DNA of 49,324 bases from Segetibacter sp. (GTDB lineage Bacteria > Bacteroidota > Bacteroidia > Chitinophagales > Chitinophagaceae): NCBI GenBank assembly GCA_028288485.1, contig JAQBNO010000082.1:1-49324 (forward strand). The letters run 5' to 3'. The notes beneath the pieces were generated by a model. It did not search any database and was not told the origin of the DNA. It was given only the letters and a program-made list of their open reading frames with translations. The first letter of the stretch is position 1, and every line of letters starts with the position of its first letter. Below, one piece after another: positions 6,295-43,737 of the stretch. Position numbers and translations under genes: made by a program.

Positions 6295-6350
6295 GATGAA
6301 CGAAATGCGACGCAACGATGATTAAATGGCGATATAATGCTTGTACCAAA
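6295..6350 (+). repeat. Dispersed GCGACGC intergenic repeat, copy A
   Basis: Contains TGCGACGCAACGATG (6306-6320), then ATTAAA, ATATA and CTTGTACCAAAAA (ending about 6352), just upstream of the sulfatase ATG at 6366. Copy B (15372-15430) matches it nearly throughout, including the flank GATRAACGRAA. Confidence 0.75.
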
Positions 6351-6365
6351 AAGAAGTAAACCAAT

Positions 6366-7880
6366 ATGAGACAAAACACAATTAAATACACAAGCCTCTT
6401 TACCGTTTTCTTAATCGTGGCTTGTTACCAGGTTGCTGGACAAAACGCAAAGCGCCAGCCCATGAACATCATCTTCATTCTTGCCGATGATCATCGCTAT
6501 GATGCCATGGGGTTTATGGGAAAGATTAAGGGACTTCAGACACCAGGCATGGACAGGATGGCGAATGAAGGTGTGCATATAAAAAATGCTTTCGTATCAA
6601 CGGCGCTTTGCTCGCCAAGCCGCGCTTCGATACTTACAGGACAATATGCGCATACACATACTGTAGTTGATAATGAAGCGCCAATGCCGGCCAATCTCAC
6701 CTTCTTTCCACAGTACCTGCAAAAGAAGGGTTACCAGACGTCTTTTTACGGTAAATGGCACATGGGCAATACCGACGATCAGCCGCAGCCCGGTTTTGAT
6801 CATTGGGTAAGTTTCAGGGGGCAGGGGGTTTATTATAAACCCACTTTGAATATTGATGGCAAAAGAGTACCGCAAGCGGAAGGAAGTTATACAAGCGATC
6901 TTTTAACCGATCAAGCCATTGACTGGCTCGATAAGCGCAACAAGCAAAAGCCATTCTTTGTATACCTGTCGCATAAAGGGGTGCATGCAGAGTTTCAGCC
7001 TGCCAGGCGGCATGAAGGGAAATATGCAAATATCCCCATTGTTACGCCGCCTTCGATGTACCTGACCGCCACTGACAGCAGTAAATTTTATGGTATACCA
7101 ACTTCACCTGCTACAACTGTTAATTACAGCGATATTCCCAAATGGGTGCGCAGCCAGCGATATAGCTGGCACGGAGTGGATTATATGTACAATGGCACCA
7201 TAAAGTTTGACCAGTTCTACCGGCGCTATCTTGAAACGCTGCAGGCAGTGGACGAAAGTATTGAGCGTGTGCTCAACTGGCTGAAGGAAAATAACCTGGA
7301 TAAGAATACGATGGTAGTGTATATGGGCGACAACGGTTTTTCATTTGGCGAGCATGGACTGATAGATAAACGACACGCTTATGAGGAGTCGATGCGTGTT
7401 CCGTTGCTGGCGTGGGCACCCGGATTTATTAAGCCGAAATCGGTAGTTGAAAATGTGGTGATGAATGTGGATATAGCACCAACATTTTTAGAGCTGGCAG
7501 GAGTTGATGTTCCAAAAAATATGCAGGGGCAATCGTTTGTGCCTTTGCTGGAAGGGAAAAATATTCCCTGGCGAAACAAGGTGTTTTACGAGTATTACTG
7601 GGAATCGGCGTTCCCGCAAACACCTACCATATTCTCGGTTAGAACAGACAGGTACAAATACATTTATAACCAGGGTGTGTGGGACATCAATGAATTATAC
7701 GACCTGAAGAATGATCCTTATGAAATGAACAATTTAATCCGCGATAAAAAGTTTGAAACTGTAGGCAAGCAACTCCGCACTGAACTTTTCGACTGGCTCG
7801 AACAATCCAACGGCCTGCAAATCCCGTTAAAGAAAGCGGGAGGCAACAGGAACGATCACCGGTATGCAGGTAGTTATTAA
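6366..7880 (+). CDS. Secreted S1-family sulfatase (formylglycine type)
   Basis: The 504-residue protein has an N-terminal export signal; VAC at residues 18-20 could be a lipobox, or cleavage may follow VAGQ near residue 26. The alkaline-phosphatase-fold sulfatase domain begins MNIIFILADDHRYD, with D41-D42 as likely calcium ligands. CSPSRASILTG follows, with C82 as the cysteine that is converted to formylglycine. Further blocks are FYGKWHMG, YMGDNGFSFGEHG and the C-terminal LYDLKNDPYEMNN typical of S1 sulfatases. Such enzymes hydrolyse sulfate esters of glycans; the sugar target is unknown. An anaerobic- or aerobic-type maturase is needed and none is in the window. It is separate from the mannan genes, and whether it takes part in their pathway is unclear. 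Confidence 0.95.
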   Translation: MRQNTIKYTSLFTVFLIVACYQVAGQNAKRQPMNIIFILADDHRYDAMGFMGKIKGLQTPGMDRMANEGVHIKNAFVSTALCSPSRASILTGQYAHTHTVVDNEAPMPANLTFFPQYLQKKGYQTSFYGKWHMGNTDDQPQPGFDHWVSFRGQGVYYKPTLNIDGKRVPQAEGSYTSDLLTDQAIDWLDKRNKQKPFFVYLSHKGVHAEFQPARRHEGKYANIPIVTPPSMYLTATDSSKFYGIPTSPATTVNYSDIPKWVRSQRYSWHGVDYMYNGTIKFDQFYRRYLETLQAVDESIERVLNWLKENNLDKNTMVVYMGDNGFSFGEHGLIDKRHAYEESMRVPLLAWAPGFIKPKSVVENVVMNVDIAPTFLELAGVDVPKNMQGQSFVPLLEGKNIPWRNKVFYEYYWESAFPQTPTIFSVRTDRYKYIYNQGVWDINELYDLKNDPYEMNNLIRDKKFETVGKQLRTELFDWLEQSNGLQIPLKKAGGNRNDHRYAGSY

Positions 7881-7934
7881 TTACAGTGGTTGAATGATTT
7901 GTAATGATAGAAGCTCGGTGCAACAGTAAATTGC

Positions 7935-7985
7935 TTCCTTTAAATCTTTGTGCTTCTCCGTGTTCTCCACGTCTTTGTGGTTCAA
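7935..7985. repeat. CTTTGTG-type degenerate repeat
   Basis: Holds CTTTGTGCTTCTCCGTG and CTTTGTGGTTCAA, related to the patch at 6180-6290. The rest of the 298-base spacer between the convergent sulfatase and esterase genes shows nothing more. Confidence 0.45.
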
Positions 7986-8178
7986 TCAAAGATCAATAAA
8001 GGAGCTACAGATAAACGGAGCGCCATCACCAACGGGATCTGTTTGCACAGCGAGAAGCGATAAAAAACAAATGCAGGTAACCTAAAATAAAATAGTAGAT
8101 CAAAAATGGCCGGTCCACCTATATCACGACAAGGCACCAGCAACTTTGTACCTGGAACGTGTAACCGGTAACTTTTCT

Positions 8179-9279: not shown

Positions 9280-9396
9280 AAAATATTTTTTATCGTTACA
9301 TTTAGATCCGCTGCTGTTAATGATTTTCTTTTAACCCTACAATTGTAATTGAATGTAGCATTATAGCCTCTAATTTCCTCTGCCGTCACCACAAAA

Positions 9397-11772: not shown

Positions 11773-11867
11773 AATTTGGTTACAACTCTTCGTTCAACTT
11801 CTGCGTTCTTTTGTCGGTTTGAGGGTAAAAATGCCGAAAATTTTTTTGAGCCCGGCTTTTGTTCTTT

Positions 11868-11918
11868 GATTAAGCATCGTTGCGTCGCACACTTGTACCC
11901 TCTGTTTCATTTTCGGCA
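11868..11918 (-). repeat. Dispersed GCGACGC intergenic repeat, copy C
   Basis: On the minus strand the core GTACAAGTGTGCGACGCAAC occupies 11898-11879 and is followed by GATGCTTAATC. It lies between two minus-strand genes, about 105 bases before the downstream start. The plus-strand flank TCTGTTTCATTTTCGGCA is shared with copy D (24580-24620), so these two copies are related beyond the core. Confidence 0.75.
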
Positions 11919-11930
11919 GAACATTTTTCA

Positions 11931-15287: not shown

Positions 15288-15371
15288 CAGTGATTAAGCG
15301 ATTAAATTATGTGTGTTTATATCCCTCGGTCTTAAAATCAGCTCTAAAAAAAGCTCCCCAAACAACAGGAC

Positions 15372-15430
15372 GATAAACGGAATGCGACGCAACGATGTTG
15401 ATTAAAGAGATATAGCCTGTACCAAAAAAA
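15372..15430 (+). repeat. Dispersed GCGACGC intergenic repeat, copy B
   Basis: Holds GATAAACGGAATGCGACGC, AACGATG, ATTAAA, ATATA and CTGTACCAAAAAA in the same order as copy A (6295-6350). It lies between the AraC gene end and the FG-GAP gene start, both on the minus strand. Confidence 0.75.
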
Positions 15431-15437
15431 TGGATCA

Positions 15438-16322: not shown

Positions 16323-16370
16323 GGCATCTTTTTTGAATAAATATGTAGGCAACCGAGGAATCGAACTATA

Positions 16371-16420: not shown

Positions 16421-16513
16421 TAGGCGGTAATCCCGGTAAAAGGCTCTTACCTGTTGAACATGCACTTCCGATAAATGTTTGAACACTGATAATTATCATG
16501 ATTAAAAGATAAA

Positions 16514-16536
16514 AAAGTATCAGTGTGCTGGTATAA
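16514..16536 (+). promoter_or_regulatory. AraC operator half-site next to the susC promoter
   Basis: The 23 bases starting AAAGTATCAGTGTGCTG match 16392-16414 (AAAGTATCAATGCGCTG...) at 19 of 23 positions. It ends seven bases before the candidate -7 box, overlapping where the -33 element should be, which is the usual position for a class II activator. Confidence 0.55.
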
Positions 16537-16543
16537 TTTCATC

Positions 16544-16551
16544 TACTTTTG
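16544..16551 (+). promoter_or_regulatory. Candidate -7 box of susC promoter
   Basis: TACTTTTG fits the Bacteroidota -7 consensus TAnnTTTG and lies 25 bases before the susC ATG. No good TTTG is found at -33, which fits a promoter that needs an activator. Confidence 0.45.
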
Positions 16552-16576
16552 GTGCCAACAAATTAAAGTTTGCTAT

Positions 16577-19735: not shown

Positions 19736-19748
19736 AAGAATTAGAAAA

Positions 19749-21467: not shown

Positions 21468-21502
21468 GCAATCAACGTTATAATAAAAATTTGCAAGTCA
21501 AA

Positions 21503-22654: not shown

Positions 22655-22681
22655 ACATTTATAAGTTTTTAAATAAAAACA

Positions 22682-24496: not shown

Positions 24497-24579
24497 TTGA
24501 CATAGGAAACATCGTTCATTCAATAGCGTATAGTTATAAAATGTTTTGTTGACAAGCAGTTGTATTTCTAATGATCATC

Positions 24580-24620
24580 GTTGTGTCACTCACTTGTACA
24601 GATGGTGTTTCATTCGGCAA
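24580..24620 (-). repeat. Dispersed GCGACGC intergenic repeat, copy D (diverged)
   Basis: The core is changed to GTTGTGTCACTCACTTGTAC (24580-24599 on the plus strand) compared with GTTGCGTCGCACACTTGTAC in copy C. Shared flanks CATC before and GTTTCATTCGGCA after show common descent. Confidence 0.6.
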
Positions 24621-24694
24621 AAACTGCAACAACGGATAAGTCAACAACATTAGTCGTAAATTAATTAAGGTAAATTTCACCTAAAAATTTCATC

Positions 24695-24735
24695 AAAAAA
24701 ATGGTCCGTATCTCGTGATATCGGGCCATTTTTTT
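24695..24735 (+). terminator. Intrinsic terminator or leader attenuator before GH26
   Basis: Seven A residues, TGGTCCG (24702-24708), a short loop and CGGGCCA (24722-24728) followed by seven T residues make a strong stem with one G-T pair and a U-tract. The U-tract ends 28 bases before the GH26 ATG at 24764, too close for an ordinary promoter in between. Confidence 0.8.
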
Positions 24736-24763
24736 AAATCACACTTCAATTGCAGAAAGTGCC

Positions 24764-26032: not shown

Positions 26033-26060
26033 TAAAAGATCGTATTAGAGCGTAAGAATT

Positions 26061-27320: not shown

Positions 27321-27358
27321 GAGATTGCATGTTACCGGTTGCCGATTGCCATTTCACA

Positions 27359-27411
27359 GTACAAGTGTGCGACGCAACAGAAGTTTAATAGTTAAACAAA
27401 GGCTTAGTACC
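27359..27411 (+). repeat. Dispersed GCGACGC intergenic repeat, copy E
   Basis: Starts with the full core GTACAAGTGTGCGACGCAAC (27359-27378) and ends with CTTAGTACCAAAAA, close to the CTTGTACCAAAAA end of copy A. It lies between the GH26 gene and the symporter, 20 bases before the symporter ATG. Confidence 0.8.
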
Positions 27412-27431
27412 AAAAAAAAACAAACTAATTA

Positions 27432-29261: not shown

Positions 29262-29350
29262 CCCGGCCCTAAGGACGTGTTAAGACGTTAATATTTATTT
29301 TTATACCCCATTAGTGAAGGGGTTGAACGCTACAGCATCAAATAACGCAT

Positions 29351-30574: not shown

Positions 30575-30748
30575 CTAGTATTATGGCAAACGGGAAACGT
30601 CAAAGGTCAAAATGGCAGGGGTCTTTTTTCCCGGTTGTCGGCATCACTTTTGACTTTGCACCCACCGACAATTTTATGTTGAGCCGGCACAGGTACAGTT
30701 AAACTTTTTTTGTCAAACTATAAGTGGAGGTATAAACGCAAAATTTTG

Positions 30749-31957: not shown

Positions 31958-32074
31958 TTAACGGTCCCAATGAAAATTTGGTGTTTAAAATTGAACATTG
32001 ATAGTTGTACGGTGGTGATTTGTGGTTTTATAAAAGCTGTTATTGGCCATGCAGCAGTTAACGAATTAAGCATT

Positions 32075-32094
32075 GTTGCGTCGCACTCTTGTAC
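32075..32094 (-). repeat. Dispersed GCGACGC intergenic repeat, copy F
   Basis: The plus-strand sequence GTTGCGTCGCACTCTTGTAC is the reverse complement of the core GTACAAGAGTGCGACGCAAC found in copies G and H. It is preceded by TTAAGCAT, as in copy C. Confidence 0.8.
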
Positions 32095-32214
32095 TGCAAA
32101 TCATCGGTCCACCTAAATGAGAAGTGTTTTTATCATTTTGCAGAGCTATTTACATTAGAAATTCAATCCGGAACAATTCAAAAAATAGAGAATTTGGAAG
32201 GCCGACGCACAGGG

Positions 32215-32250
32215 GCAACCTTCTCCTCCGGCAGAAGGAGGATGAAGTAA
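32215..32250. repeat. CTTCTCCTC-type hairpin repeat
   Basis: CTCCT and AGGAG arms around CCGGCAGA form a small hairpin followed by GATGAAG. The same pattern (CTTCTCCTC, GGGAGAAGGATGAGG) recurs at 49205-49245 near the window end. Confidence 0.5.
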
Positions 32251-32362
32251 AACATTGCACATCGAGCTGAAACATAAACAGTAATCACGACGCAATGTGA
32301 AAGGCCGAAGGATGGATTCGTAGTATGTTCTTTCCCCTAAAACCTGGAACTGAGTTATTGTC

Positions 32363-32411
32363 GTACAAGAGTGCGACGCAACTAACTCCATTAAACTCCA
32401 ATGCTGGTACC
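32363..32411 (+). repeat. Dispersed GCGACGC intergenic repeat, copy G
   Basis: GTACAAGAGTGCGACGCAAC (32363-32382) followed by CATTAAA and ending at GCTGGTACC. It ends 43 bases before the alpha-galactosidase ATG, the same layout as copies A and E before their genes. Confidence 0.8.
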
Positions 32412-32454
32412 ATAAATAACACTGGCTTTTTAAACATTTAAAACAATAATTCGT

Positions 32455-33690
32455 ATGAAAAAGAATATTGGCGCGATCGTCTTGCTTTTGATTGTAACGG
32501 TCTCTGCTTATAGCCAGGGTAATAACTATAAACAGAACTATACAAAATACCAGGGGCTTGCCCTTACTCCGCCTATGGGCTGGAATAGCTGGAACAAGTT
32601 TGCCTGTAATGTTGATGAGAACTTAATTAAGCAAATGGCAGATGCTATGGTGTCAACGGGGATGAAAGATGCTGGTTATACTTATTTAAACATTGACGAC
32701 TGCTGGCATGGCGACCGTGATAGTCTCGGCTTTATTCACCCCGATCCAAAAAGATTTCCTTCGGGCATGAAAGCGCTTGCAGATTATGTACATTCTAAAG
32801 GATTGAAAATAGGGATCTATTCCGACGCCGGTTCTCAAACATGCGGTGGTAGACCCGGCAGCCGGGGATATGAATTCCAGGATGCACAGATGTATGCAAA
32901 ATGGGGGATCGATTACCTTAAATACGATTGGTGCAATACGGAAGGTTTAAAACAGGAAGGGGCGTATAAAACAATCGCTGCAGCCTTGCAAAAAGCAGGA
33001 AGGCCAATTGTACTGAGTTTGTGTGAATGGGGCCAAAGTAACCCCTGGAGATGGGCAGGCAACGTTGGGCATTTGTGGCGTTCAACTGGCGACATCACCA
33101 ATCAATGGGAAGGCGTAAAAAGTATGGGCACGTGGCGTGCGTTAAGTGTAATGAAAATACTGGAAAGCCAGGACACACTTAGAAAATATGCCGGCCCGGG
33201 CCGTTGGAACGATCCTGATATGCTGGAAGTAGGAAATGGCATGCCGGTAAATGAAGACCGGGCTCACTTCTCGATGTGGGCAATGATTGCAGCCCCTCTT
33301 ATTGCAGGAAATGATCTGCGCAATATGAGTAAAGCAACTGCAGAGATCCTGATGAATAAAGAGGTGATTGCGGTAAACCAGGATTCGTTAGGAGTACAGG
33401 CGTTAAAATACACCACGAAAGATAGTCTTGAAACATGGTTAAAGCCTTTAAAAGGTGGTGACTGGGCAGTAACATTCCTCAACAGGAACAGCCAACCGCA
33501 GCAAGTCGATTTCGATTGGCAAAGCCGGGTGATAAATGACGATTTATCAAAAGCTACGCTGGATGCCAAACTTGGAACATATAAAGTGCGTGATCTTTGG
33601 ACAAAAAAAGACCGGGGCGATACAAGGAAGGCCTTAAAAGCAACAGTTCCCGCTCATGATGTTTTGATGCTCAGGCTGACTAAATCCTAA
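32455..33690 (+). CDS. GH27 alpha-galactosidase (secreted)
   Basis: The 411-residue protein has a signal peptide (VLLLIVTVSAYSQ) and no lipobox, so it is likely periplasmic. The GH27 barrel begins LTPPMGWNSWNKFACNVDE, continues with YTYLNIDDCW and KIGIYSDAGSQTCGG, and holds the catalytic pair: YLKYDWCN (nucleophile D158) and WRSTGDI (acid/base D213). A beta-sandwich C-terminal domain closes the protein (DVLMLRLTKS). GH27 enzymes remove terminal alpha-1,6-galactose, here presumably from galactomannan before or during GH26 attack. It is the last gene of the mannan locus and lies 497 bases behind the epimerase, so it may have its own promoter. Confidence 0.95.
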   Translation: MKKNIGAIVLLLIVTVSAYSQGNNYKQNYTKYQGLALTPPMGWNSWNKFACNVDENLIKQMADAMVSTGMKDAGYTYLNIDDCWHGDRDSLGFIHPDPKRFPSGMKALADYVHSKGLKIGIYSDAGSQTCGGRPGSRGYEFQDAQMYAKWGIDYLKYDWCNTEGLKQEGAYKTIAAALQKAGRPIVLSLCEWGQSNPWRWAGNVGHLWRSTGDITNQWEGVKSMGTWRALSVMKILESQDTLRKYAGPGRWNDPDMLEVGNGMPVNEDRAHFSMWAMIAAPLIAGNDLRNMSKATAEILMNKEVIAVNQDSLGVQALKYTTKDSLETWLKPLKGGDWAVTFLNRNSQPQQVDFDWQSRVINDDLSKATLDAKLGTYKVRDLWTKKDRGDTRKALKATVPAHDVLMLRLTKS

Positions 33691-34058: not shown

Positions 34059-36821
34059 ATGCGCCTTGCCAAAATAAATAAAGCGTTTCTCGTAACCGGT
34101 ACCCTGCTTGTACTGGCTACAATTTTTGTTTTTAGTACAAGCCGCTCTACTATTGATTATAGCACACAGGTTAAGCCCATTCTTAATAAAAGTTGTATTA
34201 CCTGCCACGGCGGCGTAAAAAAGCAAGGCGGATTTAGTGTATTATTCCGGTCTGAAGCTTTGGCCAAACTAAAGTCAGGACGCTACGGTATAGTTCCCGG
34301 TGATCCCGGTAAGAGTGAAATGATTCGCAGGATCAACTTAAAGGACCCGGAAGAACGAATGCCGTACGAACATCCGCCTTTAACGGGGGACGAAATAGAG
34401 ATCCTGACCAAATGGGTGAAACAAGGCGCTCAATGGGGCGATCACTGGGCCTATGTACCGGTACAAAAAGTAGAAGTGCCAAAGCCGGCAGGTTCTTTTT
34501 TCGGCTTATTTTCTTCAGAGAACGATTGGGGTAAGAACGACATAGATTACTTCATTTATGATAAGCTGCAAGAGCAAAAACTAAAACCCTCAGGTGAAGC
34601 TGACAAAGCAACACTGTTAAGAAGGGTAAGTCTCGATCTGGTTGGTTTACCTGCTTCGCAAAGTTTAGCGCAGCAATTTTTGCACAATAACAATGAGAAG
34701 GCTTACGAACGGCTTGTAGATTCGTTATTGTCATCTCCACACTTTGGTGAAAGATGGACGTCGGTTTGGCTCGATCTCTCGCGGTACGCCGATACCAAAG
34801 GCTATGAAAGGGATGCGGGCAGAAGCATCTGGCATTACCGTGATTGGTTGATTAAGGCCTTCAACGAAGACAAGCCTTACGACGAGTTTTTAATCGAACA
34901 ATTAGCAGGCGACCTTTTGCCAAATGCAACAGATGAGCAGTTTATAGCTACGGCCTTCCATCGAAACACCATGACGAATGATGAAGGAGGAACAGAAAAT
35001 GAAGAATTCAGAACTGCCGCTGTTATTGACCGGGTAAATACTACCTGGCAAAGTTTGCTGGGAACAACATTCGCTTGTGTGCAATGTCATAGTCATCCTT
35101 ACGATCCTTTTACCCACGACGAGTATTATAAGTTCATGGCTTTTTTTAACGATACACGTGATGAAGACACCGAGGCCGATTATCCTGTACTGCGCCATTA
35201 CAACGAAGAGGATAGCTTAAAAGTTAGGAAGGTAATTGAGTGGCTGAACAAAAATAATTTTACCGACAGGGCCAGGCCCGTTTATCAATTTCTAAAAACA
35301 TGGCAACCTGCTGTCAACTCACTTCTATCGGACCAGTTTATTAATAGTGAATTGAATGATACCAAATGGCTTGCTTTCCGTAACAACGCGTCGGCTCGCT
35401 TACCGCATGTAAACCTCGATCAATCGAACGAGCTGATCTTCCGTTATCAAAGTTCTTTACCGGGAGGTGTATGGACTATACATGTAGATGCGCCTACAGG
35501 GCCGGTTTTAAAAAAGGTGACTGTACCGGCAACGAAGGGATGGAGCATCAGTAGTATAACTTTTCCTGCCCGGTCGGGCACCCATGATCTTTACTTTTCC
35601 TATACAAATTCCGGTTTAAAAAAGCCTACAGATAACGGCATGATGTTCGACTGGTTTTACTTTACCCAATCATTCCCGGGTAAGGATAGGCCCGGTTACG
35701 ATACGATCAAAAACACGTGGTGGCAATTGCTTACAAAAGAAGTTCCAACAACCCCGGTGATGATGGACAATCCTTCCTGGATGCGTCGCAACACAAATGT
35801 ATTTGTAGCAGGTAATTGGCTGGTCAAGGGAAAACAGGTGGAAGCTGATGTACCACATACTTTAAATCCACTTCAAAAGAACACGCCGCGCAATCGCTTA
35901 GGTTTAGCTAAATGGTTAACTGATAAAAAGAATCCATTAACCGCACGAACCATGGTTAACCGGTTGTGGGAACAGTTGTTTGGCACCGGCCTGGTAGAAA
36001 CCTTAGAAGATATGGGAACAAAAGGTGCAGAGCCGACACACCAGCAACTGTTGGATTTTCTTTCTTGGAAGTACATGAATGAGTTTAACTGGAGTACTAA
36101 AAAGTTGCTGAAGGAAATAGTGATGTCAGCCACCTACAGGCAAAGTTCTAAGGTAACCAAAGAACACCTCGAGTCTGACCAGTATAACCGGTTTTATGAA
36201 AGAGGTGTTCGTGTTCGTTTGTCGGCAGAGCAGATACGAGACCAGGCCTTGGTAGCAAGCGGGGTTTTAAGTGTAAAAATGTATGGACCAAGCATAAAGC
36301 CCTGGCAGCCTGAAGGAATTTGGATGTCGCCATGGAATGGCGAGTACTGGCAAACGAGCACTGGAGAGGATCAATACAGGCGGGCGGTCTATACTTACTG
36401 GAAGAGAACTGCCCCTTATCCTTCTATGATCACATTTGATGGAGTAGGCAGGGAAGTATGTACATCCCGGCGCATTCGTACCAATACCCCCTTGCAGGCA
36501 CTGGTTACCCTGAACGATTCGGCCTACCTCGACTTGTCGAGGCAGTTTGCCTACCGCATCGAAAATGAAATGAAGAATAACGATGCAAAGGCTTTGATAA
36601 GCAGGGGCTACGAGATTTTGATGTACCACCAAATTGCTCCTGGAAAGTTAAATGCATTGGAAAGGCTTTACAATAGTGCTTACAATAAGTTTAAGGATGA
36701 TCCCGGGAAGACCTGCGAGATGATTGGTGTAAATGATTCGCATAATAACCCGCGGACAGCAGCACTTGTTGTAGTAGCAAATGCGTTGTTGAATTTGGAT
36801 GAAGTGATCACAAAGAATTAA
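34059..36821 (+). CDS. PSD1 planctomycete-type cytochrome with CBM6-like insert
   Basis: The 920-residue protein has one N-terminal hydrophobic segment (AFLVTGTLLVLATIFVF) acting as signal or anchor. A planctomycete-type cytochrome C domain follows with a haem motif CITCH (C46, C49, H50), then PSCyt1 features (GDPGKSEMIRRI, EERMPYEHPPL). Next is a DUF1549 domain (LRRVSLDLVGLP, FGERWTSVWLDLSRYADTKGYERD), with a second CxxCH at C340/C343/H344 (CVQCHSHPYDPF). A CBM6-like beta-sandwich is inserted at about residues 415-540 (GGVWTIHVDAPTGPVL, TKGWSISSITFPARSGTHDL, GMMFDWFYF). The DUF1553 domain ends it (NRLWEQLFGTGLVETLEDMG, TNTPLQALVTLNDSAYLDLSRQ). The family is widespread in Planctomycetes and Bacteroidota but has no established biochemical role; extracytoplasmic redox work on sugars is a guess supported by the CBM. 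Confidence 0.93.
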   Translation: MRLAKINKAFLVTGTLLVLATIFVFSTSRSTIDYSTQVKPILNKSCITCHGGVKKQGGFSVLFRSEALAKLKSGRYGIVPGDPGKSEMIRRINLKDPEERMPYEHPPLTGDEIEILTKWVKQGAQWGDHWAYVPVQKVEVPKPAGSFFGLFSSENDWGKNDIDYFIYDKLQEQKLKPSGEADKATLLRRVSLDLVGLPASQSLAQQFLHNNNEKAYERLVDSLLSSPHFGERWTSVWLDLSRYADTKGYERDAGRSIWHYRDWLIKAFNEDKPYDEFLIEQLAGDLLPNATDEQFIATAFHRNTMTNDEGGTENEEFRTAAVIDRVNTTWQSLLGTTFACVQCHSHPYDPFTHDEYYKFMAFFNDTRDEDTEADYPVLRHYNEEDSLKVRKVIEWLNKNNFTDRARPVYQFLKTWQPAVNSLLSDQFINSELNDTKWLAFRNNASARLPHVNLDQSNELIFRYQSSLPGGVWTIHVDAPTGPVLKKVTVPATKGWSISSITFPARSGTHDLYFSYTNSGLKKPTDNGMMFDWFYFTQSFPGKDRPGYDTIKNTWWQLLTKEVPTTPVMMDNPSWMRRNTNVFVAGNWLVKGKQVEADVPHTLNPLQKNTPRNRLGLAKWLTDKKNPLTARTMVNRLWEQLFGTGLVETLEDMGTKGAEPTHQQLLDFLSWKYMNEFNWSTKKLLKEIVMSATYRQSSKVTKEHLESDQYNRFYERGVRVRLSAEQIRDQALVASGVLSVKMYGPSIKPWQPEGIWMSPWNGEYWQTSTGEDQYRRAVYTYWKRTAPYPSMITFDGVGREVCTSRRIRTNTPLQALVTLNDSAYLDLSRQFAYRIENEMKNNDAKALISRGYEILMYHQIAPGKLNALERLYNSAYNKFKDDPGKTCEMIGVNDSHNNPRTAALVVVANALLNLDEVITKN

Positions 36822-36968
36822 ATGGATTTATGGAACCAGCAGAAAAACTCTTCGACATCGTCTCCGCCCTGGCGGGGCTGACTGCAACTTGTACATTCTC
36901 TGTTCGGCTTTCCCAACATTTGTCAATAAACATAAAGTAGTCGAAAGGGAACCAATAAAGTTTATTAC

Positions 36969-38480
36969 ATGACGCAAAAAGAATTACATAATCAAAGGCT
37001 GGTGAGAGAAGCGGAAGAAACAGTCGCCAGGATGCATACAAGAAGGCACTTTTTAAAAGAGTGTGCAATGGGTTTTGGTGGCTTAGCCCTTGGTTCTCTG
37101 TTGGGGTGTGGTACCGGTTCCGGTAGCTCAGCTGCATCATCAATTGATTTTGATCCTGCGCATCCGCTTATTCCCAAGCTGCCCATGTTTCCTGGCAAAG
37201 CTAAAAGTGTTATTTACCTCCATATGGCAGGCGCGCCTTCTCAATTGGAGACATTTGATTATAAACCCGAGCTGATGAAATTAGACGGACAGGATTGTCC
37301 GCCATCGTTATTGGAAGGGAAACGTTTTGCCTTCATTCGCGGTGTTCCTAAAATGCTTGGTCCTCAGGCCAAATTTGCACAGTATGGACAAAGCGGTGCA
37401 TGGGTAAGTGAACATTTGCCACATTTTTCAAAAATAGTAGATGAGGTTAGTTTTTTAAAAGCGTGTACGTCGGATCAATTCAATCATGCGCCGGCACAAC
37501 TACTAATGCAAACGGGTGGTGCACGTTTAGGCAGACCGAGCATGGGTTCATGGGTAACTTATGGACTGGGGACAGAAAACCAGAACTTACCGGGTTTTGT
37601 AGTTTTAACCTCCGGTGGTAAATTTCCTGATGCCGGTAAAAGTGTTTGGGGCAGCGGCTTTTTGCCTTCCGTTTACCAGGGAGTGCAATGCAGAAGCGAA
37701 GGCGATCCGGTTTTATTCATTAAAGATCCTGCCGGTATAGATCGTGACTTGCGCAAAGCTTCAATCAATGCTATCAATACAGTGAACGAAGAAGAATATA
37801 AGGAGTACAACGATCCTGAAATCTTATCGCGTATCTCCCAGTACGAGATGGCCTACAAGATGCAAATAGCGGCACCTGAAGTAATGAATATTAATAACGA
37901 GCCGCAATATATTCATGAAATGTATGGAACACAACCTGGTAAATCAAGTCTTGCGAACAATGTATTACTTGCAAGAAAGCTGGTGGAAAAAGGAGTACGT
38001 TTTGTTCAAATTTTTGACTGGGGCTGGGATAGTCATGGTACAGACGCAAGCCTTGCCATCGACATCGGTTTTATTAATAAGTGCAGGCAAACAGACAGGG
38101 CGATGACCGCATTGGTTCTTGATCTTAAACAAAGAGGATTATTGGAAGAAACTCTTGTAGTCTGGGGTGGTGAATTTGGAAGAACACCTATGATGGAAAA
38201 CAGGGAAGGCAAACAAAATCCGTTTAAAGGGCGCGATCATCATACCGAAGCTTTTACCATGTGGATGGCCGGAGGTGGCATTAAAAAAGGATACACCTAT
38301 GGTGAGACAGATGAAATCGGTTATAGCTCGATCAGCGGAAAAGTTACTCCGCACGATATACAGGCTACCTTGCTAAACCAATTGGGATTCGATCATGAAA
38401 AGTTTACTTATCAGTACCAGGGCAGGCCATTTCGGCTAACAGATGTAGCCGGTAAAGTAATAGAAGAGATCATTACGTAA
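36969..38480 (+). CDS. Tat-exported DUF1501 protein
   Basis: The 503-residue protein has a twin-arginine signal (TRRHFLKECAMGFGGLALGSLLGC, R25-R26), showing that it is exported folded and perhaps with a cofactor; the Cys of LLGC might be lipidated. The rest is DUF1501, an alkaline-phosphatase-like fold, with KSVIYLHMAGAPSQLETFDYKP, DQFNHAPAQLLMQTGG, IFDWGWDSHGT, VVWGGEFGRTPM and KGRDHHTEAF as conserved blocks; the Asp/His residues look like metal ligands. It follows the PSD1 gene by 147 bases, and PSD1-DUF1501 pairs are a recurrent arrangement. The substrate is unknown. Confidence 0.93.
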   Translation: MTQKELHNQRLVREAEETVARMHTRRHFLKECAMGFGGLALGSLLGCGTGSGSSAASSIDFDPAHPLIPKLPMFPGKAKSVIYLHMAGAPSQLETFDYKPELMKLDGQDCPPSLLEGKRFAFIRGVPKMLGPQAKFAQYGQSGAWVSEHLPHFSKIVDEVSFLKACTSDQFNHAPAQLLMQTGGARLGRPSMGSWVTYGLGTENQNLPGFVVLTSGGKFPDAGKSVWGSGFLPSVYQGVQCRSEGDPVLFIKDPAGIDRDLRKASINAINTVNEEEYKEYNDPEILSRISQYEMAYKMQIAAPEVMNINNEPQYIHEMYGTQPGKSSLANNVLLARKLVEKGVRFVQIFDWGWDSHGTDASLAIDIGFINKCRQTDRAMTALVLDLKQRGLLEETLVVWGGEFGRTPMMENREGKQNPFKGRDHHTEAFTMWMAGGGIKKGYTYGETDEIGYSSISGKVTPHDIQATLLNQLGFDHEKFTYQYQGRPFRLTDVAGKVIEEIIT

Positions 38481-39143
38481 ATTCAAACAGTGTACCTCAC
38501 CTTCTTTTGCTGCGAACTGTCTGATAAAAATTCTTAAATTGACCTCATGGAAGTACAAGTAGACATAGGATTTAAACAGTTGCTTAAAATCGTAAAGGCG
38601 TTGCCTTTGGCTAGTTGAAGCAATTAAAGTCTGAAATTGAAAAGTCAAACTCTCAATGGATTGCATTAGTTAGACAAGGATATAAATTCAAAATTTCTGC
38701 CGTAACGAAATATGAAATTTATTCCGGCACTTCTATAAGTCAATTATCCTTCTTGAATAATATATTTCAAGCCGTAGAGGTTATTCCTTTTGACGAAACA
38801 TCAGCACAAACGGCGGCGATATTAATAATGCTTTAAAGACGAAATGCAAACAAATTGATATAGCCGGTTTATTTATTGCAGCTACAGCTGTTTCTGACGG
38901 CCGCTCCCGGCGACATTGAATAAAAAGCGCTTTGATCGCATTGATACTTTAATACGTGTAGAATAAGGTGAACGTGCAACAGCGGTCACTGTTGCAGAAC
39001 TCCTGACAATTGCAGTGTGTTTGCAAATGTTGGCGGATAGAACGTAGCGCAGGAGTCGTTTTTTAATTTAGCTTTATATCATTAATCAGGGTGGTAATTC
39101 TATTGCCGCCACATCCCCACACTCTAACGAAACCAACAACTGA
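38481..39143. other. Intergenic region with toxin-antitoxin scar
   Basis: The 663-base gap interrupts the PSD1-DUF1501-isomerase cluster. It contains the decayed toxin-antitoxin pair at 38547-38966. The remaining parts (38967-39143) show no gene or strong hairpin. Confidence 0.6.
38547..38966 (+). pseudogene. Decayed type II toxin-antitoxin pair (PIN-domain toxin)
   Basis: ATG at 38547 opens MEVQVDIGFKQLLKIVKALP, a typical small antitoxin N-terminus, but the frame ends in TGA after 23 residues. The reading continues in another frame from TTG 38615 as LKQLKSEIEKSNSQ, then runs directly into PIN-domain toxin sequence (KFKISAVTKYEIYSGTS, FLNNIFQAVEVIPFDETSAQTAA). After the stop at 38834-38836 two more frames keep toxin features: IDIAGLFIAATAV, then ATLNKKRFDRIDTLIRVE ending at TAA 38964-38966. 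So there are at least three frameshifts, and the antitoxin C-terminus and toxin N-terminus with its first catalytic Asp are deleted. The toxin would have been a VapC-like RNase. None of the pieces is likely to be functional. Confidence 0.8.
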
Positions 39144-40073
39144 ATGCTTAAAAGCAGGAGAAAATTTATTCAAACATCTGTTACTGCAAGTACCGCCTTG
39201 CTTTTATCTTCCTTACAATCCTTTGCCAACCAGGCCGGGTTTACCGAGAACAAAAGTTTTGACCTGAAAATATTGGCTACCAACTGGGGCTTTCAAGGAA
39301 CATTGGATGAATATTGTAGTAAAGTAAAAAAAGAAGGCTATGATGGAATCGAGATCTGGTGGCCAATGGAAAAGAATGGCCAGGACGAATTATTTACATG
39401 TCTTAAGAAGCACAGCTTAGATGTTGGCTTTTTAGTCGGTGGTTCTCAAAGTAATTTTCAACAGCACCTTGATTATTTTAAAGCGATGATTGATGCAGCT
39501 GCTGCCAATACTGTTCAAAAACCTTTATACATCAATTGCCATTCCGGTAGAGATTTTTTTAGTTATGAGGAAAACAAGGCTTTTATAGATTACACTACTC
39601 CATTATCTAAACGAACAGGTATTTTAATTTGCCATGAAACCCACCGTTCACGCATGTTGTTTGCCGCACCGGTAGCAAAGCAATTCATTCAAAAGAATCC
39701 TGAACTAAAAATAACATTCGATGTCTCGCACTGGTGCAACGTCAGTGAATCCTTACTACAGGATCAACCTGAAAATATTGCAATTGCTCTGGACAGGGTT
39801 GAACATATTCACGCCAGGATCGGTCATGCGGAAGGTCCACAGGTAAATGATCCCCGGGCACCTGAATGGGAAGCTGCAGTGAAAGCTCATTTTGAATGGT
39901 GGGATAAAATTGCGGCCCGCAAAAAAGAAGCCGGGGAACGGCTAACCATATTAACAGAGTTCGGTCCCCCTGACTATATGCCTACAACACCTTATACAAA
40001 ACAACCCCTCGCCGACCAATGGGCCATTAATGTTTACATGATGCACTTATTACGCAAACGCTATGCTTCCTGA
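39144..40073 (+). CDS. Tat-exported sugar phosphate isomerase/epimerase-like TIM barrel
   Basis: The 309-residue protein begins with a Tat-like signal (SRRKFIQTSVTASTALLLSSLQSFA-N, R5-R6). The remainder is an AP_endonuc_2 type TIM barrel: LKILATNWGFQGTLDEYC, EGYDGIEIWWPM, INCHSGRDFFSYEE, GILICHETHRSRML, ITFDVSHWCN, VEHIHARIGHAEGPQ and ILTEFGPPDYMP. The ordered E, H, D, H and E residues fit the metal-binding set of xylose-isomerase-like barrels. Export makes a phosphorylated substrate unlikely; a free sugar or its keto derivative is more plausible. It belongs with the PSD1 and DUF1501 genes upstream (usual partners), from which it is separated by the toxin-antitoxin scar. Confidence 0.9.
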   Translation: MLKSRRKFIQTSVTASTALLLSSLQSFANQAGFTENKSFDLKILATNWGFQGTLDEYCSKVKKEGYDGIEIWWPMEKNGQDELFTCLKKHSLDVGFLVGGSQSNFQQHLDYFKAMIDAAAANTVQKPLYINCHSGRDFFSYEENKAFIDYTTPLSKRTGILICHETHRSRMLFAAPVAKQFIQKNPELKITFDVSHWCNVSESLLQDQPENIAIALDRVEHIHARIGHAEGPQVNDPRAPEWEAAVKAHFEWWDKIAARKKEAGERLTILTEFGPPDYMPTTPYTKQPLADQWAINVYMMHLLRKRYAS

Positions 40074-40200
40074 TAAAAATGCTATACGATCAGGAATGTT
40101 CGGCACAGCAGCGAATGGATTTTAATCGGTGATTCTTAATTTCGAAAATTTCAATATCCTACATCCTAATTCAATGTCGTTGACTTAAGCTATAATATGA

Positions 40201-40273
40201 TGTCAGGCTGAGCCGGTCGAAGCCTTATCGCGATAGGAGTAATTAGATACCCTTCGACAAGCTCAGGGCGACA
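40201..40273. repeat. REP-like inverted repeat (GGTCGAAG / CCTTCGACAAGCTCAGG)
   Basis: TGTCAGGCTGAGCCGGTCGA-AGCC (40201-40224) pairs imperfectly with CCTTCGACAAGCTCAGGGCG-ACA (40251-40273). This is the widespread intergenic CTTCGACAAGCTCAG palindrome type. It lies between isomerase and cytochrome genes and is followed by tandem AATTCCT units (40297-40318). Related pieces (CGAAGGGTACCCC, CTGTCGAAGGGG) lie at 49042-49070. Confidence 0.75.
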
Positions 40274-40294
40274 AACGTTAAGTAAACAGCATTG

Positions 40295-40320
40295 AATTCT
40301 AATTCCTAATTCCTAATTCA
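40295..40320 (+). repeat. Short tandem AATTCCT repeat
   Basis: TTGAATTCTAATTCCTAATTCCTAATTC reads as three to four 7-base units (TAATTCC) directly before the cytochrome gene. Such units change number easily by slippage. Confidence 0.5.
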
Positions 40321-40330
40321 CTCTCTGTCA

Positions 40331-41743
40331 ATGTTCTTATCAGTTACAGAATTTGTTGGGCGCTTCCATCCTGTTTTAGTGCATTTGCCAATTGGTATTT
40401 TATTGATCGGCCTCCTGTTGCAATGGCTTTCTACTAAAGAAAAATACAAGGTTTCTTCAGAAGTAATAAAAATTGTTTTGCTCTGTGGCACCTTTACCGC
40501 TATTATCTCTTGCATAACCGGCTACCTGCTTTCTTTAAGTGGCGATTATGAAGGCAGCCTCGTCGACTGGCACATGTGGATGGGAGTTACAGTAGCTGCG
40601 GCCTCTATTTTCCTCTGCTTAAGAATACTGAAAAAGAAATATGGTATTGTTCATAAAGCCACCTCCTTTTCTTTATTAATGCTGGTTATCATTACCGGCC
40701 ACTTAGGTGGTTCACTAACCCACGGCTCCGATTACCTGACTTCGGCTTTGGTAAGTGATGTTGATACCATTGTAAAGCCGAAAAACATACCCAACATACA
40801 GGAAGCGAAGGTTTATGAAGATGTAATACAACCATTGCTACAAACGAAATGCTATAGCTGTCATAATGCAAAAAAACAAAAGGGTGGATTAAGAATGGAC
40901 GAACCGCAATTATTGATGAAGGGAGGGAAGAATGGAGAAGTAATCCTTGCAGGAAAACCAGTCGAAAGTGAAATGATCAAACGGTTGTTATTGCCAAGGG
41001 AGGACGAAGATCATATGCCACCGAAACAAAAACCACAATTAAACGAGCGTCAAATTGCTTTGATACATTGGTGGATTAACGAGGGAGCAGATTTCAGCAA
41101 AAAAATAAAAGAACTGCGCCAACCGGAAAAGATAAAGCCGGCATTATTGGCATTGCAAAGCGATCGTTTGGAACGAAAAGCACCTGCTACAGTTCCTTCG
41201 AATGAAGTTGAAAAAGGTGACGAAAAAGCAATCTTCGCATTAAAAAATCTGGGTGCCGTAGTAACGCCTGTAGCAAAGGGAAGCAATTACCTGATGGTTA
41301 ACTTTGTTACTGCCCCGAATGTGATTGATGAAGATGTAAAGCTTTTGTTACCTGTAAAAAAACAGTTGGTGTGGCTTAAGCTCGGCGATACAAAAATTAC
41401 AGACAATGCATTAGCTGTTGTTGCTCAATGTACTAATCTTACTCTACTCCACTTAAACAATACCAACATTACAGATAAGGGCATAACCTCTTTAAAGTCA
41501 TTGAATAATCTTCAACTGCTTAATGTTGTAAATACAAAGGTTACAGCTTCAGGTATTGAACAATTGGCAAATTTAAAAAAATTGGCATCGATGTATGTTT
41601 ATAAAACAAAAGTGAAAGCGGGTGATTTTGGAAAGATCAGGAAGATTTTCCCAAAGACTATGTTAGACACAGGGGGTTATACAATACCTTTCTTAAGTAG
41701 TGATACGATGCTGGTTAAACAGCCGATGATTAATAAGGAGTAA
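40331..41743 (+). CDS. DUF2231 membrane, cytochrome c and LRR fusion protein
   Basis: The 470-residue protein opens with a DUF2231-like membrane region (HPVLVHLPIGILLIGLLLQWL, then helices to about residue 140, including DYEGSLVDWHMWMG). A planctomycete-type cytochrome C domain follows with haem motif CYSCH (C174, C177, H178) and GGLRMDEPQLLMKGG, DEDHMPPKQKPQL. The C-terminal 150 residues are leucine-rich repeats (TKITDNALAVVAQCTNLTLLHLNNTNITDKGI, TKVTASGIEQLANLKKL). The layout would place a haem and LRR outside the membrane, possibly as an electron carrier and docking part for the PSD1/DUF1501 proteins; that is inference. It is 257 bases after the isomerase gene. Confidence 0.9.
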   Translation: MFLSVTEFVGRFHPVLVHLPIGILLIGLLLQWLSTKEKYKVSSEVIKIVLLCGTFTAIISCITGYLLSLSGDYEGSLVDWHMWMGVTVAAASIFLCLRILKKKYGIVHKATSFSLLMLVIITGHLGGSLTHGSDYLTSALVSDVDTIVKPKNIPNIQEAKVYEDVIQPLLQTKCYSCHNAKKQKGGLRMDEPQLLMKGGKNGEVILAGKPVESEMIKRLLLPREDEDHMPPKQKPQLNERQIALIHWWINEGADFSKKIKELRQPEKIKPALLALQSDRLERKAPATVPSNEVEKGDEKAIFALKNLGAVVTPVAKGSNYLMVNFVTAPNVIDEDVKLLLPVKKQLVWLKLGDTKITDNALAVVAQCTNLTLLHLNNTNITDKGITSLKSLNNLQLLNVVNTKVTASGIEQLANLKKLASMYVYKTKVKAGDFGKIRKIFPKTMLDTGGYTIPFLSSDTMLVKQPMINKE

Positions 41744-41855
41744 AGGGATGTTGTAATGAAGTGGTAAACAAATTCTTTTCCTGTTGTCGTTGTTTTTTAA
41801 CCAAAGATGCTCAACTGACATACTTTATATTTGGTGAATAATTCTAAAACGCTGT

Positions 41856-42533
41856 ATGAAAAATATATCCAGGTCGGCCATTCTATTAATGTTATTCTTA
41901 ACAGGGGTGTCAATGATAAAGCAAGAAAAGACGAAAATTATATTTTTTGGTGACTCCATTACGCAGGCAGGTGTTGATCCAAAAGGATATATAACAAAGA
42001 TGCAGGAGATGCTTCAGGCAAATGGAAAAGCAACTCAATATGAACTGGTAGGAGCCGGAATTGGAGGCAATAAGATCTACGACCTCTACCTGAGAATGGA
42101 AGACGATGTACTTGCCAGAAATCCGGATGTAGTGGTAATTTGGGTGGGTGTAAACGATGTGTGGCACAAAGCTTCTTCCGGCACGGGAACCGATGCCGAT
42201 AAGTTTGAAAAATTTTATGCTGCGGTAATAAAAAAACTGCAGGCAAAAAATATAAAAGTGGTTCTTACCACGCCGGCAGCAATAGGCGAAAGAACCGATA
42301 ATAGCAACCAGCAGGATGGAGACCTGAACCAGTATTCAAACATTATCCGTAAGCTGGCTTCAACAAACAATTTGCGTTTGGTTGATCTTAGAAAATCGTT
42401 TCTCGAATACAATCTTAAGAACAATCCCGAAAACAAGGAAAAAGGCATTCTTACTACCGACCGGGTTCATTTAACAGAGCAGGGAAATGTATTTGTGGCT
42501 GAAAAAATGATGGAAGTTTTAATAGCGAAATAA
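41856..42533 (+). CDS. Secreted SGNH/GDSL hydrolase
   Basis: The 225-residue protein has a signal peptide or anchor (SAILLMLFLTGVSM) and a compact SGNH fold: IIFFGDSITQAG (block I, catalytic Ser in GDSIT), GAGIGGNKI (block II Gly), WVGVNDVW (block III Asn) and TTDRVHLTEQGN (block V Asp and His). Enzymes like this remove acetyl or other acyl groups from glycans or lipids. It is the last plus-strand gene of the cytochrome/DUF1501 group, 112 bases behind the cytochrome-LRR gene, so an acylated sugar may be the shared substrate (inference). It is not closely similar to the CE2-like esterase at 8179-9279: it lacks the jelly-roll domain. Confidence 0.92.
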   Translation: MKNISRSAILLMLFLTGVSMIKQEKTKIIFFGDSITQAGVDPKGYITKMQEMLQANGKATQYELVGAGIGGNKIYDLYLRMEDDVLARNPDVVVIWVGVNDVWHKASSGTGTDADKFEKFYAAVIKKLQAKNIKVVLTTPAAIGERTDNSNQQDGDLNQYSNIIRKLASTNNLRLVDLRKSFLEYNLKNNPENKEKGILTTDRVHLTEQGNVFVAEKMMEVLIAK

Positions 42534-43024
42534 GCATGCGTGAATAGCGAATAGTGAATGGTGAATGCTGGGCGGTGACTGAGGCGGCGATTATTTTTTT
42601 ACCGGTCAACGGTCATCCGTCAACTGTTAACTTGTTTTTCGAAAAACGTGAACTTGTTTTCATTCCCTCTCACCTGCATGTGTAATTTTTTGTTACCGGC
42701 TTAAGCAATTCTGTTAGACATCGTTCCCTCGAACGGGTCAGGTAGTGTTACTCACACAAAACCTGCAATGTGCGCGGGAATAGCAATAATATTTTTGACA
42801 CCTTATTTTACAATTTTACGGGTGGAAAGCAGGCTAATAATAAGTGTGTCTTTTGACCTATTCTTTATACATCAAAGCAAGCAGCGATAACCGTTACTCC
42901 ACCAGCGATAGGACTGTTTTTTAAGGTGAAATTGCCGATTACTGCATTGACGACGACGGTATAACGGTTTCATTTTCTAAAAGTTCCCGCCGCACGGTCG
43001 CTAACATAACAGGAAACATTGCCC

Positions 43025-43170
43025 TGGTGAAAAGCAATACCAACAACAGGACACTTCCCTTGCGGATCTTCTTATCCCACTGGACGATACCAGCCAAAGA
43101 AACACGAAAGTTTGCTGCCGAATAATTACCGAACCTGTATAGCGCCATTGCGATGATCTCAAAACCCGGG
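43025..43170 (-). pseudogene. Possible fragment of a 3-ketoacyl synthase-like gene
   Basis: In the minus-strand frame spanning 42939-43382, the piece SPGFEIIAMALYRFGNYSAA, then LAGIVQWDKKIRKG, resembles the conserved C-terminal segment of FAE1/KCS-type 3-ketoacyl synthases (LYRFGNTSSSSIWYELAY...KGRVKKGD). Sequence around it does not match the family, and the adjacent frame (VVGIAFHQGNVSCYV) may continue it after a frameshift. This points to a decayed remnant. The rest of the open frame is not gene-like. A chance match cannot be excluded. Confidence 0.35.
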
Positions 43171-43717
43171 CTTGCCAGTGTATCATGAGTATATTGTTTG
43201 TGGTAAAACCTGCCGCTATTGCAACAAAAAGCATTACCGATGTGAATGAGCCAGGAACTGGCTGAAGCAATACTTGTAATGGCCGCCGGATATCGGTTCC
43301 CGCTAAAGATACTATGCAATGAAAGCCTGAGGGCAAAAGGAGGTGTAGAACTTGCAAATACATTAGTATTATTTATATACATATATATTTATTTTCATTT
43401 TTCATTTTTTCGATTAAGTATAACAATTCAAATACATCTCTATAATACTGATATGTATGTGTGTTTTTTAACTGTTTTAAAATCAGTGTTTTAACACCTA
43501 TCTCTACTTTAAAGCTACTTTTCTTTTAATTTTTTTTTGGCATTCTATTATTTTTAATATAGTTTGCAGTAGATAACGAGGAATGAAATTCTCGATTAGT
43601 AACAACAACAGGTAAGGCGGCATACGCCAAATAAGCGTACGAAGGGTAGAAGAGTGATGATTTTAGGGCGTAAAAAAGAAGTTGAATCGCATCATTTCGC
43701 CGCCCAGGAATACCTGG

Positions 43718-43737
43718 GTACAAGAGTGCGACGCAAC
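43718..43737 (+). repeat. Dispersed GCGACGC intergenic repeat, copy H
   Basis: Full core GTACAAGAGTGCGACGCAAC, followed by AGAAG as in copy E and by GTTGGTAACC near 43760-43769. Confidence 0.8.

What the first reader, a model, noticed from the sequence alone, without database searches (positions are those of the whole stretch)
6295..43737. Dispersed intergenic repeat with core GTACAAGWGTGCGACGCAAC, eight copies in 49 kb
Copies lie at 6295-6350 (+), 11879-11898 (-), 15372-15430 (+), 24580-24599 (- and diverged), 27359-27411 (+), 32075-32094 (-), 32363-32411 (+) and 43718-43737 (+). All are between genes. The core carries the palindrome TGCGACGCA. Longer copies begin GTACAAG and end CTTGTACC or (T)GGTACC, so the element is about 50 bases with short inverted ends, like a miniature mobile element. 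Three copies (A, E, G) end 15-45 bases before a plus-strand start codon, and copy C lies upstream of a gene in the same orientation, so a role in transcription or translation start is also possible.
Basis: seen in the sequence. Interest (0 to 1): 0.75.

Follow-up and report, generated by a model that had tools for sequence, protein, structure and literature searches.

The report
Oriented intergenic repeats that exclude each other
This bacterial genome carries many hundreds of copies of a short repeat between its genes, and copies on the same DNA strand almost never lie close together while copies pointing opposite ways do, as if an enzyme cuts out the DNA between two copies that point the same way.

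Summary
The repeat is real and belongs to a larger family. Core GTACAAGNG-TGCGACGCAAC (A) has 470 places in the 6.4 Mb genome; sister core GTACAAGNG-AGTGACACAAC (B) has 451. In 1.63 Mb I found 363 copies of five subfamilies. Copies lie between genes, often 50-150 bp after a stop codon. A numbers run from 0 to 848 in the family; none in 47 genomes of other families of the order. The proposed inverted ends occur in 2 of 363 copies; a start-site role is not supported. Some sites are shared by congeners, core kept, flanks diverged. The new observation is orientation-dependent exclusion: same-strand pairs 0.4-2.5 kb apart are 7, against 59 opposite (3 against 33 in another genus). Tail-to-tail pairs are rare below 1 kb, head-to-head pairs are near expectation, and beyond 6 kb orientation is random. 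Other intergenic repeats show no such bias. I read it as a REP/REPIN-like family whose copies act as oriented sites for an unidentified enzyme that removes DNA between same-strand copies. No transposase or integrase family tested tracks copy number. The mechanism is inferred.

The parts
6295..6350 (+). Subfamily E copy (GATGAACGAAATGCGACGCAAC, then GATG...GCTTGTACCAAAAA)
11841..11898 (-). Subfamily A copy, core 11879-11898, tail GATGCTTAATC...GCCGGGCTCAAAAAAA
15372..15430 (+). Subfamily E copy (GATAAACGGAATGCGACGCAAC)
24544..24599 (-).
27359..27419 (+). Subfamily A copy, core 27359-27378
32040..32094 (-). Subfamily A copy, core 32075-32094; left member of a head-to-head pair, 288 bp core to core
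32363..32415 (+). Subfamily A copy, core 32363-32382; right member of the head-to-head pair
43718..43775 (+). Subfamily A copy; overlaps only a 100-aa naive ORF (43526-43828, minus)
48938..49090 (-).

Best explanation
The repeat is one subfamily of a REP/REPIN-like, non-autonomous intergenic family of Chitinophagaceae. Each copy is an oriented site of about 75-80 bp: TTGCYG - GTACAAGNG-TGCGAC|GCAAC - GATG..AATAG..GCCGGNACCAAAAA. Shown: high and variable copy number, placement between genes often just after stop codons, positional inheritance between species with the core kept, and orientation-dependent exclusion. Inferred: an enzyme acting in trans spreads the copies, and it also excises or recombines the DNA between two copies on the same strand when they are within about 2.5-3 kb. 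Lineages that acquire such a pair would lose genes, so mainly opposite-facing neighbours survive. Two composite subfamilies (C in an A site, D in an E site) have an insert at the same base of the core (GAC|GCAAC), which fits strand exchange at that point. The enzyme is not identified.
For: Copy number of A 0-848 in 72 genomes of the family, own included, and 0 in 47 of other families; B in 34 of 298 genomes of the order, all of this family. All pairs 0.4-2.5 kb apart: 59 opposite/7 same (own genome, p 2e-11) and 33/3 (G067, another genus, p 2e-7); at 6-12 kb 196/209 and 87/87. Against an intergenic null, same-strand pairs are at 0.00-0.16 of expectation from 0.4 to 2.5 kb, tail-to-tail at 0.08 at 0.4-1 kb, head-to-head at 0.67-1.20 from 0.4 to 4 kb. 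Predicted and found: opposite-facing doublets under 400 bp, which already use both orientations, have a third copy at 0.4-2.5 kb in 3 of 30 against 120 of 305 copies in no doublet; 3 of 13 against 54 of 82 in G067. Control: other intergenic 10-, 11- and 12-mers at 0.4-2.5 kb are direct/inverted 39/36, 22/22, 14/13. It holds between subfamilies A and B (27/3, three genomes pooled) and when both copies lie between co-directional genes (18/2). Orthologous sites. Composite against simple site at one orthologous place; junctions.
Against: No enzyme found. Y1 transposase genes (PF01797) do not track copies: G033 has 265 A copies and no Y1, G001 has 625 with one broken and one weak match. Tyrosine recombinases (PF00589, 16 genomes) do not track either: G034 has 503 copies and 2 matches, G015 0 copies and 7. 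Five copies of the window fold no better than shuffles as single-stranded DNA (z -0.45 to +1.31), which speaks against a hairpin-reading transposase acting on single copies. No excised product, clean empty site or target duplication was seen. In G067 the bias is gone by 2.5-4 kb when all pairs are counted (24 opposite/19 same). B-E pairs show no clear exclusion (7/4). Tail-to-tail depletion below 1 kb is not explained by simple excision between direct copies.
Confidence: 0.45

Rival explanations
1. Ordinary instability of close direct repeats: slippage or homologous recombination deletes DNA between direct copies, so selection removes them; no dedicated enzyme is involved.
For: Direct copies are the most depleted class and depletion fades with distance, as slippage would.
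Against: Other intergenic 10-13-mers show no direct/inverted bias at the same distances; these are shorter than the 20-nt core, so the control is not complete. A-B pairs, which share short exact runs only, are excluded about as strongly (27/3) as A-A (20/2) or B-B (14/0). Tail-to-tail pairs are also depleted below 1 kb.
Confidence: 0.2
2. The insertion step itself is orientation-aware: a new copy is not placed on the same strand within about 3 kb of an old one (strand-specific target immunity), and nothing is excised.
For: Same-strand spacing has a soft minimum near 2.5 kb while head-to-head spacing looks independent.
Against: I know of no transposition immunity that depends on orientation (recalled, not searched). 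It does not explain composite subfamilies C and D.
Confidence: 0.15
3. Functional arrangement: opposite-facing copies form a useful structure (large RNA or DNA hairpins at gene ends, or domain borders), so alternation is selected.
For: Position 50-150 bp after stop codons (123 of 210 tandem cases, 54 expected); in 13 of 16 head-to-head pairs under 220 bp the two cores pair with each other over at least 10 bases in the RNA fold (no shuffled control); core kept at orthologous sites, with a B form that keeps the dyad where others have A at gapA in G005 and G006.
Against: It gives no reason to forbid same-strand copies, and A copy number falls to 3 in one congener and 0 in other genera.
Confidence: 0.15
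4. REPs of a RAYT (Y1 transposase) that has since been lost or sits elsewhere in most genomes; the exclusion reflects single-strand excision by it.
For: 4 of 45 Y1 loci have a '-' copy on the left and a '+' copy on the right within the flank held: L010 (own, broken), L364 (G155, open frame), L365 and L370 (G001, broken and weak). In random placements the same arrangement is met in 2.6% (own genome) to 4.1% (G067) of points, so about 1 would be expected among the carrier loci; a weak excess.
Against: 41 of 45 Y1 loci lack it, among them the intact own gene L009 with no copy at all; counts do not track copies.
Confidence: 0.1
5. Plain MITE of an IS with terminal inverted repeats.
For: Short, intergenic, non-coding, lineage-variable.
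Against: No terminal inverted repeat; fold unremarkable. I did not search systematically for a parent element.
Confidence: 0.05

Closest known systems
REP / BIME elements, GTAG- and CGTC-tagged (PMC3733652; passages and one section read)
   Same: Hundreds of short partly palindromic intergenic copies; several subfamilies in one genome; in its CGTC families head-to-head dimers predominate, tail-to-tail are rare and head-to-tail negligible, the same ranking as here; CGTC families also lack a dedicated transposase.
   Different: No GTAG or CGTC tag beside a 5-13 bp stem; single copies do not fold stably; the orientation rule here reaches 2.5-4 kb, far beyond dimers (most spacers 20-100 bp in that paper).
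REPINs with RAYTs (PMC3116915, passages read; PMC2817692, abstract read)
   Same: Inverted doublets with a conserved core occur.
   Different: Doublets are a minority here (30 doublets, 305 copies in none), against 61% of REPs in doublets in SBW25; Y1 genes flanked by inverted copies are 4 of 45 and do not track copy number.
pdif sites / dif modules of Acinetobacter plasmids (PMC13141974; passages read)
   Same: Neighbouring sites alternate in orientation, and excision needs directly oriented sites.
   Different: There alternation follows from C and D modules having to alternate; different sequence; here chromosomal, about 1 copy per 4.5 kb, no link to XerC/XerD shown.
MITEs
   Same: Short non-autonomous dispersed intergenic elements.
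   Different: No terminal inverted repeats or target duplications demonstrated.

Membership tests
REP (GTAG/CGTC superfamilies) | More than about 100 short intergenic copies | tested here: met
   470 A, 451 B; 25 of 363 inside naive ORFs of 100 aa or more
REP (GTAG/CGTC superfamilies) | Unpaired GTAG or CGTC tag beside a stem-loop of 5-13 bp | tested here: not met
   Subfamily consensuses show no GTAG tag; CGTC lies inside the dyad of A and E and is absent from B; five copies fold no better than shuffles
REP/REPIN with RAYT | A Y1 transposase gene flanked by inverted copies, with copy number following it | tested here: not met
   4 of 45 Y1 loci flanked by opposite copies (2.6-4.1% of random points); own intact Y1 (L009) has no copy in the 2,040 bases held; counts do not track
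REPIN | Inverted doublets are the main form | tested here: not met
   30 doublets (25 head-to-head, 5 tail-to-tail) and 305 copies in none in the own genome; 13 and 82 in G067
MITE | Terminal inverted repeats | tested here: not met
   CTTGTAC 3' of the core in 2 of 363, GGTACC in 14 of 363
MITE | Target-site duplication | tested here: inconclusive
   Intergenic flanks of the relatives used are too diverged to place ends
dif modules | Alternating orientation of neighbouring sites | tested here: met
dif modules | XerC/XerD recombination at the site | not testable with these tools
   G034 (503 A copies) has two tyrosine recombinase matches; no biochemical test possible

The most novel reading that the evidence does not exclude
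Chitinophagaceae chromosomes carry about a thousand oriented recombination sites (crossover at GAC|GCAAC) that are live: any two same-strand copies within about 2.5 kb lose the DNA between them, so the family has arranged itself genome-wide into opposite-facing neighbours. The enzyme would be a host or relict recombinase not yet linked to any REP-like family.
Probability: 0.25. Interest if true: 0.8.

Novelty: new variant of a known kind. Interest (0 to 1): 0.6.

Why it matters
If copies exclude one another by strand, then genome sequence alone records the reach and polarity of the process that handles them. That gives a way to study how REP-like repeats without a known transposase (an open point stated for CGTC REPs in PMC3733652) move or are removed. 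It also sets a practical test: place two copies in the same orientation and look for loss of the DNA between them.

Tried and rejected
RAYT as resident mobiliser: Y1 genes searched in the own genome, 71 genomes and 8 high-copy genomes; no tracking. A first flank scan of 31 Y1 loci used the A/E core only and missed B; I repeated it with all five subfamilies on 45 loci and found 4 flanked on both sides, a weak excess over chance, now listed as a rival. A tree of 16 Y1 proteins had 9 of 13 inner forks open, and two long rows (L067, L053) may be wrong ORFs, so I drew nothing from it. Tyrosine recombinase as mobiliser: no tracking in 16 genomes. Rfam: nothing at gathering score in the window. Phage carriage: exact A in 11, B in 16 and D in 0 stretches of the viral contigs; not followed up. 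Literature: no paper of the held library contains any of six 20-mers of the core; none holds both 'repetitive extragenic palindromic' and 'Chitinophaga'; none holds four of five terms on kb-scale REP orientation; of the lists I opened only the papers named in Closest known systems and PMC6006769 (passages and one section). The library holds open-licence PMC papers only.

First ortholog test with 30 G009 loci failed for lack of overlap (29 of 30 without synteny; the one found held an opposite-facing C copy); the same test with 30 G013 loci found one, without a copy. I then used contiguous stretches. Clean empty sites and target duplications could not be defined (its output was cut). A longer subfamily A2 (80-nt tail, 14 places in 1.63 Mb) was noted; ORFs next to three of its places look like ordinary genes by eye. 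G006 and G004 stretches hold too few copies (7 and 2) for the orientation test; G004 has one same-strand pair at 2.5-4 kb.

The 7 same-strand pairs under 400 bp are all A-D pairs at 361-388 bp, that is, copies of one composite; they were kept in the counts.
Full report
OBSERVATION. The core GTACAAGWGTGCGACGCAAC has 6 matches at up to 3 mismatches in the window, 0.00 expected. In the genome that holds the window (6,375,045 bases, 220 contigs) GTACAAGNGTGCGACGCAAC has 470 places at up to 2 mismatches, 251 plus and 219 minus; the reversed pattern has 1.

THE FAMILY. I read 1,631,543 bases of the genome (and the window; sum). The stretches were taken mostly from contigs known to hold copies, so density could be slightly high: 126 A scale to about 490 for the genome, against 470 found by the whole-genome search. 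At up to 2 mismatches they hold 363 copies: A GTACAAGNG-TGCGACGCAAC (126), B GTACAAGNG-AGTGACACAAC (129), C GTACAAGCG-AGCGTGGCAAC (31), D GTTGAACTG-AGCGTAGCAAC (30), E GATGAACGNAW-TGCGACGCAAC (47). They share a tail consensus GATG..AATAG..GCCGGNACCAAAAA. A and B have a dyad around a central A (GCGACGC, GTGACAC). C and D are composites: in many copies the left half of an A or E site up to TGCGAC is followed by CCTTCG...CTCAGGGTA units and an arm that pairs with the right core, then GCAAC. At one orthologous place G006 has a simple A site and the own genome a C composite. C and D may each have spread after a single event, so this is not many independent insertions.

DISTRIBUTION. A: 45 of 119 genomes searched, own included, have at least one match. 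Nine congeners have 3 to 625, the family 0 to 848, and 0 of 47 genomes of other families in the order have any. B: 34 of 298 genomes of the order, all in the same family. I did not identify the window's own species.

PLACE. Of 363 copies, 25 lie inside ORFs of at least 100 aa called by a simple longest-ORF rule. For 330 copies with genes on both sides: 210 between tandem genes (127 opposite to the genes, 83 along them), 78 convergent, 42 divergent; per kb of gap 1.19, 1.37 and 0.66. In tandem gaps 123 of 210 cores lie 50-150 bp after the stop (54 expected) and 2 within 50 bp of the next start (27 expected). The three window copies close to starts are therefore not typical.

INHERITANCE. Beside gapA the copy on one side is present in 8 of 10 genomes of the genus, own included (in G002 with a changed left half), and on the other side in 6 of 10. 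Mean pairwise identity: core 0.78 and 0.87; upstream 40 nt 0.52 and 0.64; downstream 42 nt 0.61 and 0.63; shuffled 0.48 and 0.49. Copies were picked by a 9-10-nt part of the core, which raises the core value. At one of these sites G005 and G006 have the B form where others have A, so the dyad is kept through a double change. Across 37 shared gene junctions with G006, G009 and G004: 6 have a copy in both genomes, 11 only in the own genome, 1 only in the relative, 19 in neither. So copies are both old and lineage-specific.

THE EXCLUSION RULE. Consecutive copies alternate in strand: opposite/same 13/0 at 0.8-1.5 kb, 37/5 at 1.5-2.5 kb, 58/15 at 2.5-4 kb, 49/32 at 4-6 kb, 33/31 at 6-10 kb. All pairs at 0.4-2.5 kb: 59/7 in the own genome, 33/3 in 400 kb of G067 (another genus, 108 copies), 3/0 in G009; at 2.5-4 kb 66/29, 24/19 and 3/0; at 6-12 kb 196/209, 87/87 and 10/11. 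In the single-contig genome G013, 71 A places listed up to 2.39 Mb give 3 opposite and 0 same at 0.4-2.5 kb, 6 and 3 at 2.5-4 kb, and 6 head-to-head pairs below 400 bp. Against 200 random placements in intergenic space, same-strand pairs are at 0.08, 0.00, 0.16 and 0.11 of expectation in the four bins from 0.4 to 2.5 kb, 0.5 at 2.5-4 kb, 0.70 at 4-6 kb and 1.07 at 6-10 kb. Tail-to-tail pairs are at 0.17 below 0.4 kb, 0.08 at 0.4-1 kb, 0.45 and 0.43 at 1-2 kb, and 0.89-1.51 at 2-4 kb. Head-to-head pairs are at 0.67-1.20 from 15 bp to 4 kb and 0.69 at 4-6 kb. The rule predicts that an opposite-facing doublet, which already holds both orientations, keeps third copies away. It does: 3 of 30 doublets (25 head-to-head, 5 tail-to-tail) against 120 of 305 copies in no doublet have a further copy at 0.4-2.5 kb (p 0.001); in G067 3 of 13 against 54 of 82 (p 0.005). 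In the window itself 7 of 8 neighbouring pairs alternate; the exception is 11 kb apart.

CONTROLS. Gene strand does not explain it: when both copies lie between genes of one direction the count is 18 opposite to 2 same. General avoidance of direct repeats does not explain it: other intergenic 10-, 11-, 12- and 13-mers at 0.4-2.5 kb are direct/inverted 39/36, 22/22, 14/13 and 11/7, with copies and 260 bp around them masked; these are shorter than the core. Sequence identity explains it poorly: A-B 27/3, A-A 20/2, B-B 14/0, A-E 6/0, but B-E 7/4 (three genomes pooled). B-E, which share least, is the weakest, which hints at a recognition step, on 11 pairs only.

MECHANISM. An oriented site whose direct pairs are removed is what site-specific excision would produce; for the dif modules of Acinetobacter plasmids excision needs directly oriented sites (PMC13141974, passages). 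REP dimers show the same ranking at short range: in CGTC families head-to-head predominant, tail-to-tail rare, head-to-tail negligible (PMC3733652). I therefore infer an enzyme that acts on same-strand copies within about 2.5-3 kb. I cannot say whether it reads single or double strands: five copies fold poorly as single DNA strands, while in 13 of 16 close head-to-head pairs the cores pair with each other over at least 10 bases in an RNA fold. Neither Y1 transposases nor tyrosine recombinases track copy number. Four of 45 Y1 loci do lie between a left '-' and a right '+' copy, where about 1 would be expected among carriers; this is a lead I could not follow.

VERDICT. Real, REP-like in organisation, not a member of GTAG/CGTC REPs, REPINs or MITEs by the features tested. 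The kb-scale, orientation-dependent exclusion is the part I did not find in print in the searches named (listings, with the papers opened as stated).

Noticed in passing
window 16523-33690: A polysaccharide-utilisation locus: SusC/SusD pair, xyloglucan-binding SGBP-B domain, two GH26, sodium symporter, GH130, GlcNAc 2-epimerase family and melibiase.
   Followed up: no
window 25022-26867: The two neighbouring GH26 genes are 70-85% alike in several stretches, a diverged tandem duplication.
   Followed up: no
window 34059-41743: PSD1/PSCyt and DUF1501 genes (PSCyt1 is named Planctomycete cytochrome C) next to a TIM-barrel gene.
   Followed up: no
own genome, for example C133:53739-53818, 14 places in the stretches read: Subfamily A2: GTACAAGCGTGCGACGCAAG with a well conserved tail to about 80 nt ending TGCAATCATTTATAGC; the uniform tail suggests recent spread.
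   Followed up: partly
own genome, D composites: Runs of CCTTCGGCTTCGCTCAGGGTA units, one to several per copy, sit inside D sites.
   Followed up: partly
L010 1501-1677: A broken Y1 transposase gene with three stops in the matched stretch, between a '-' A copy and a '+' B copy.
   Followed up: partly
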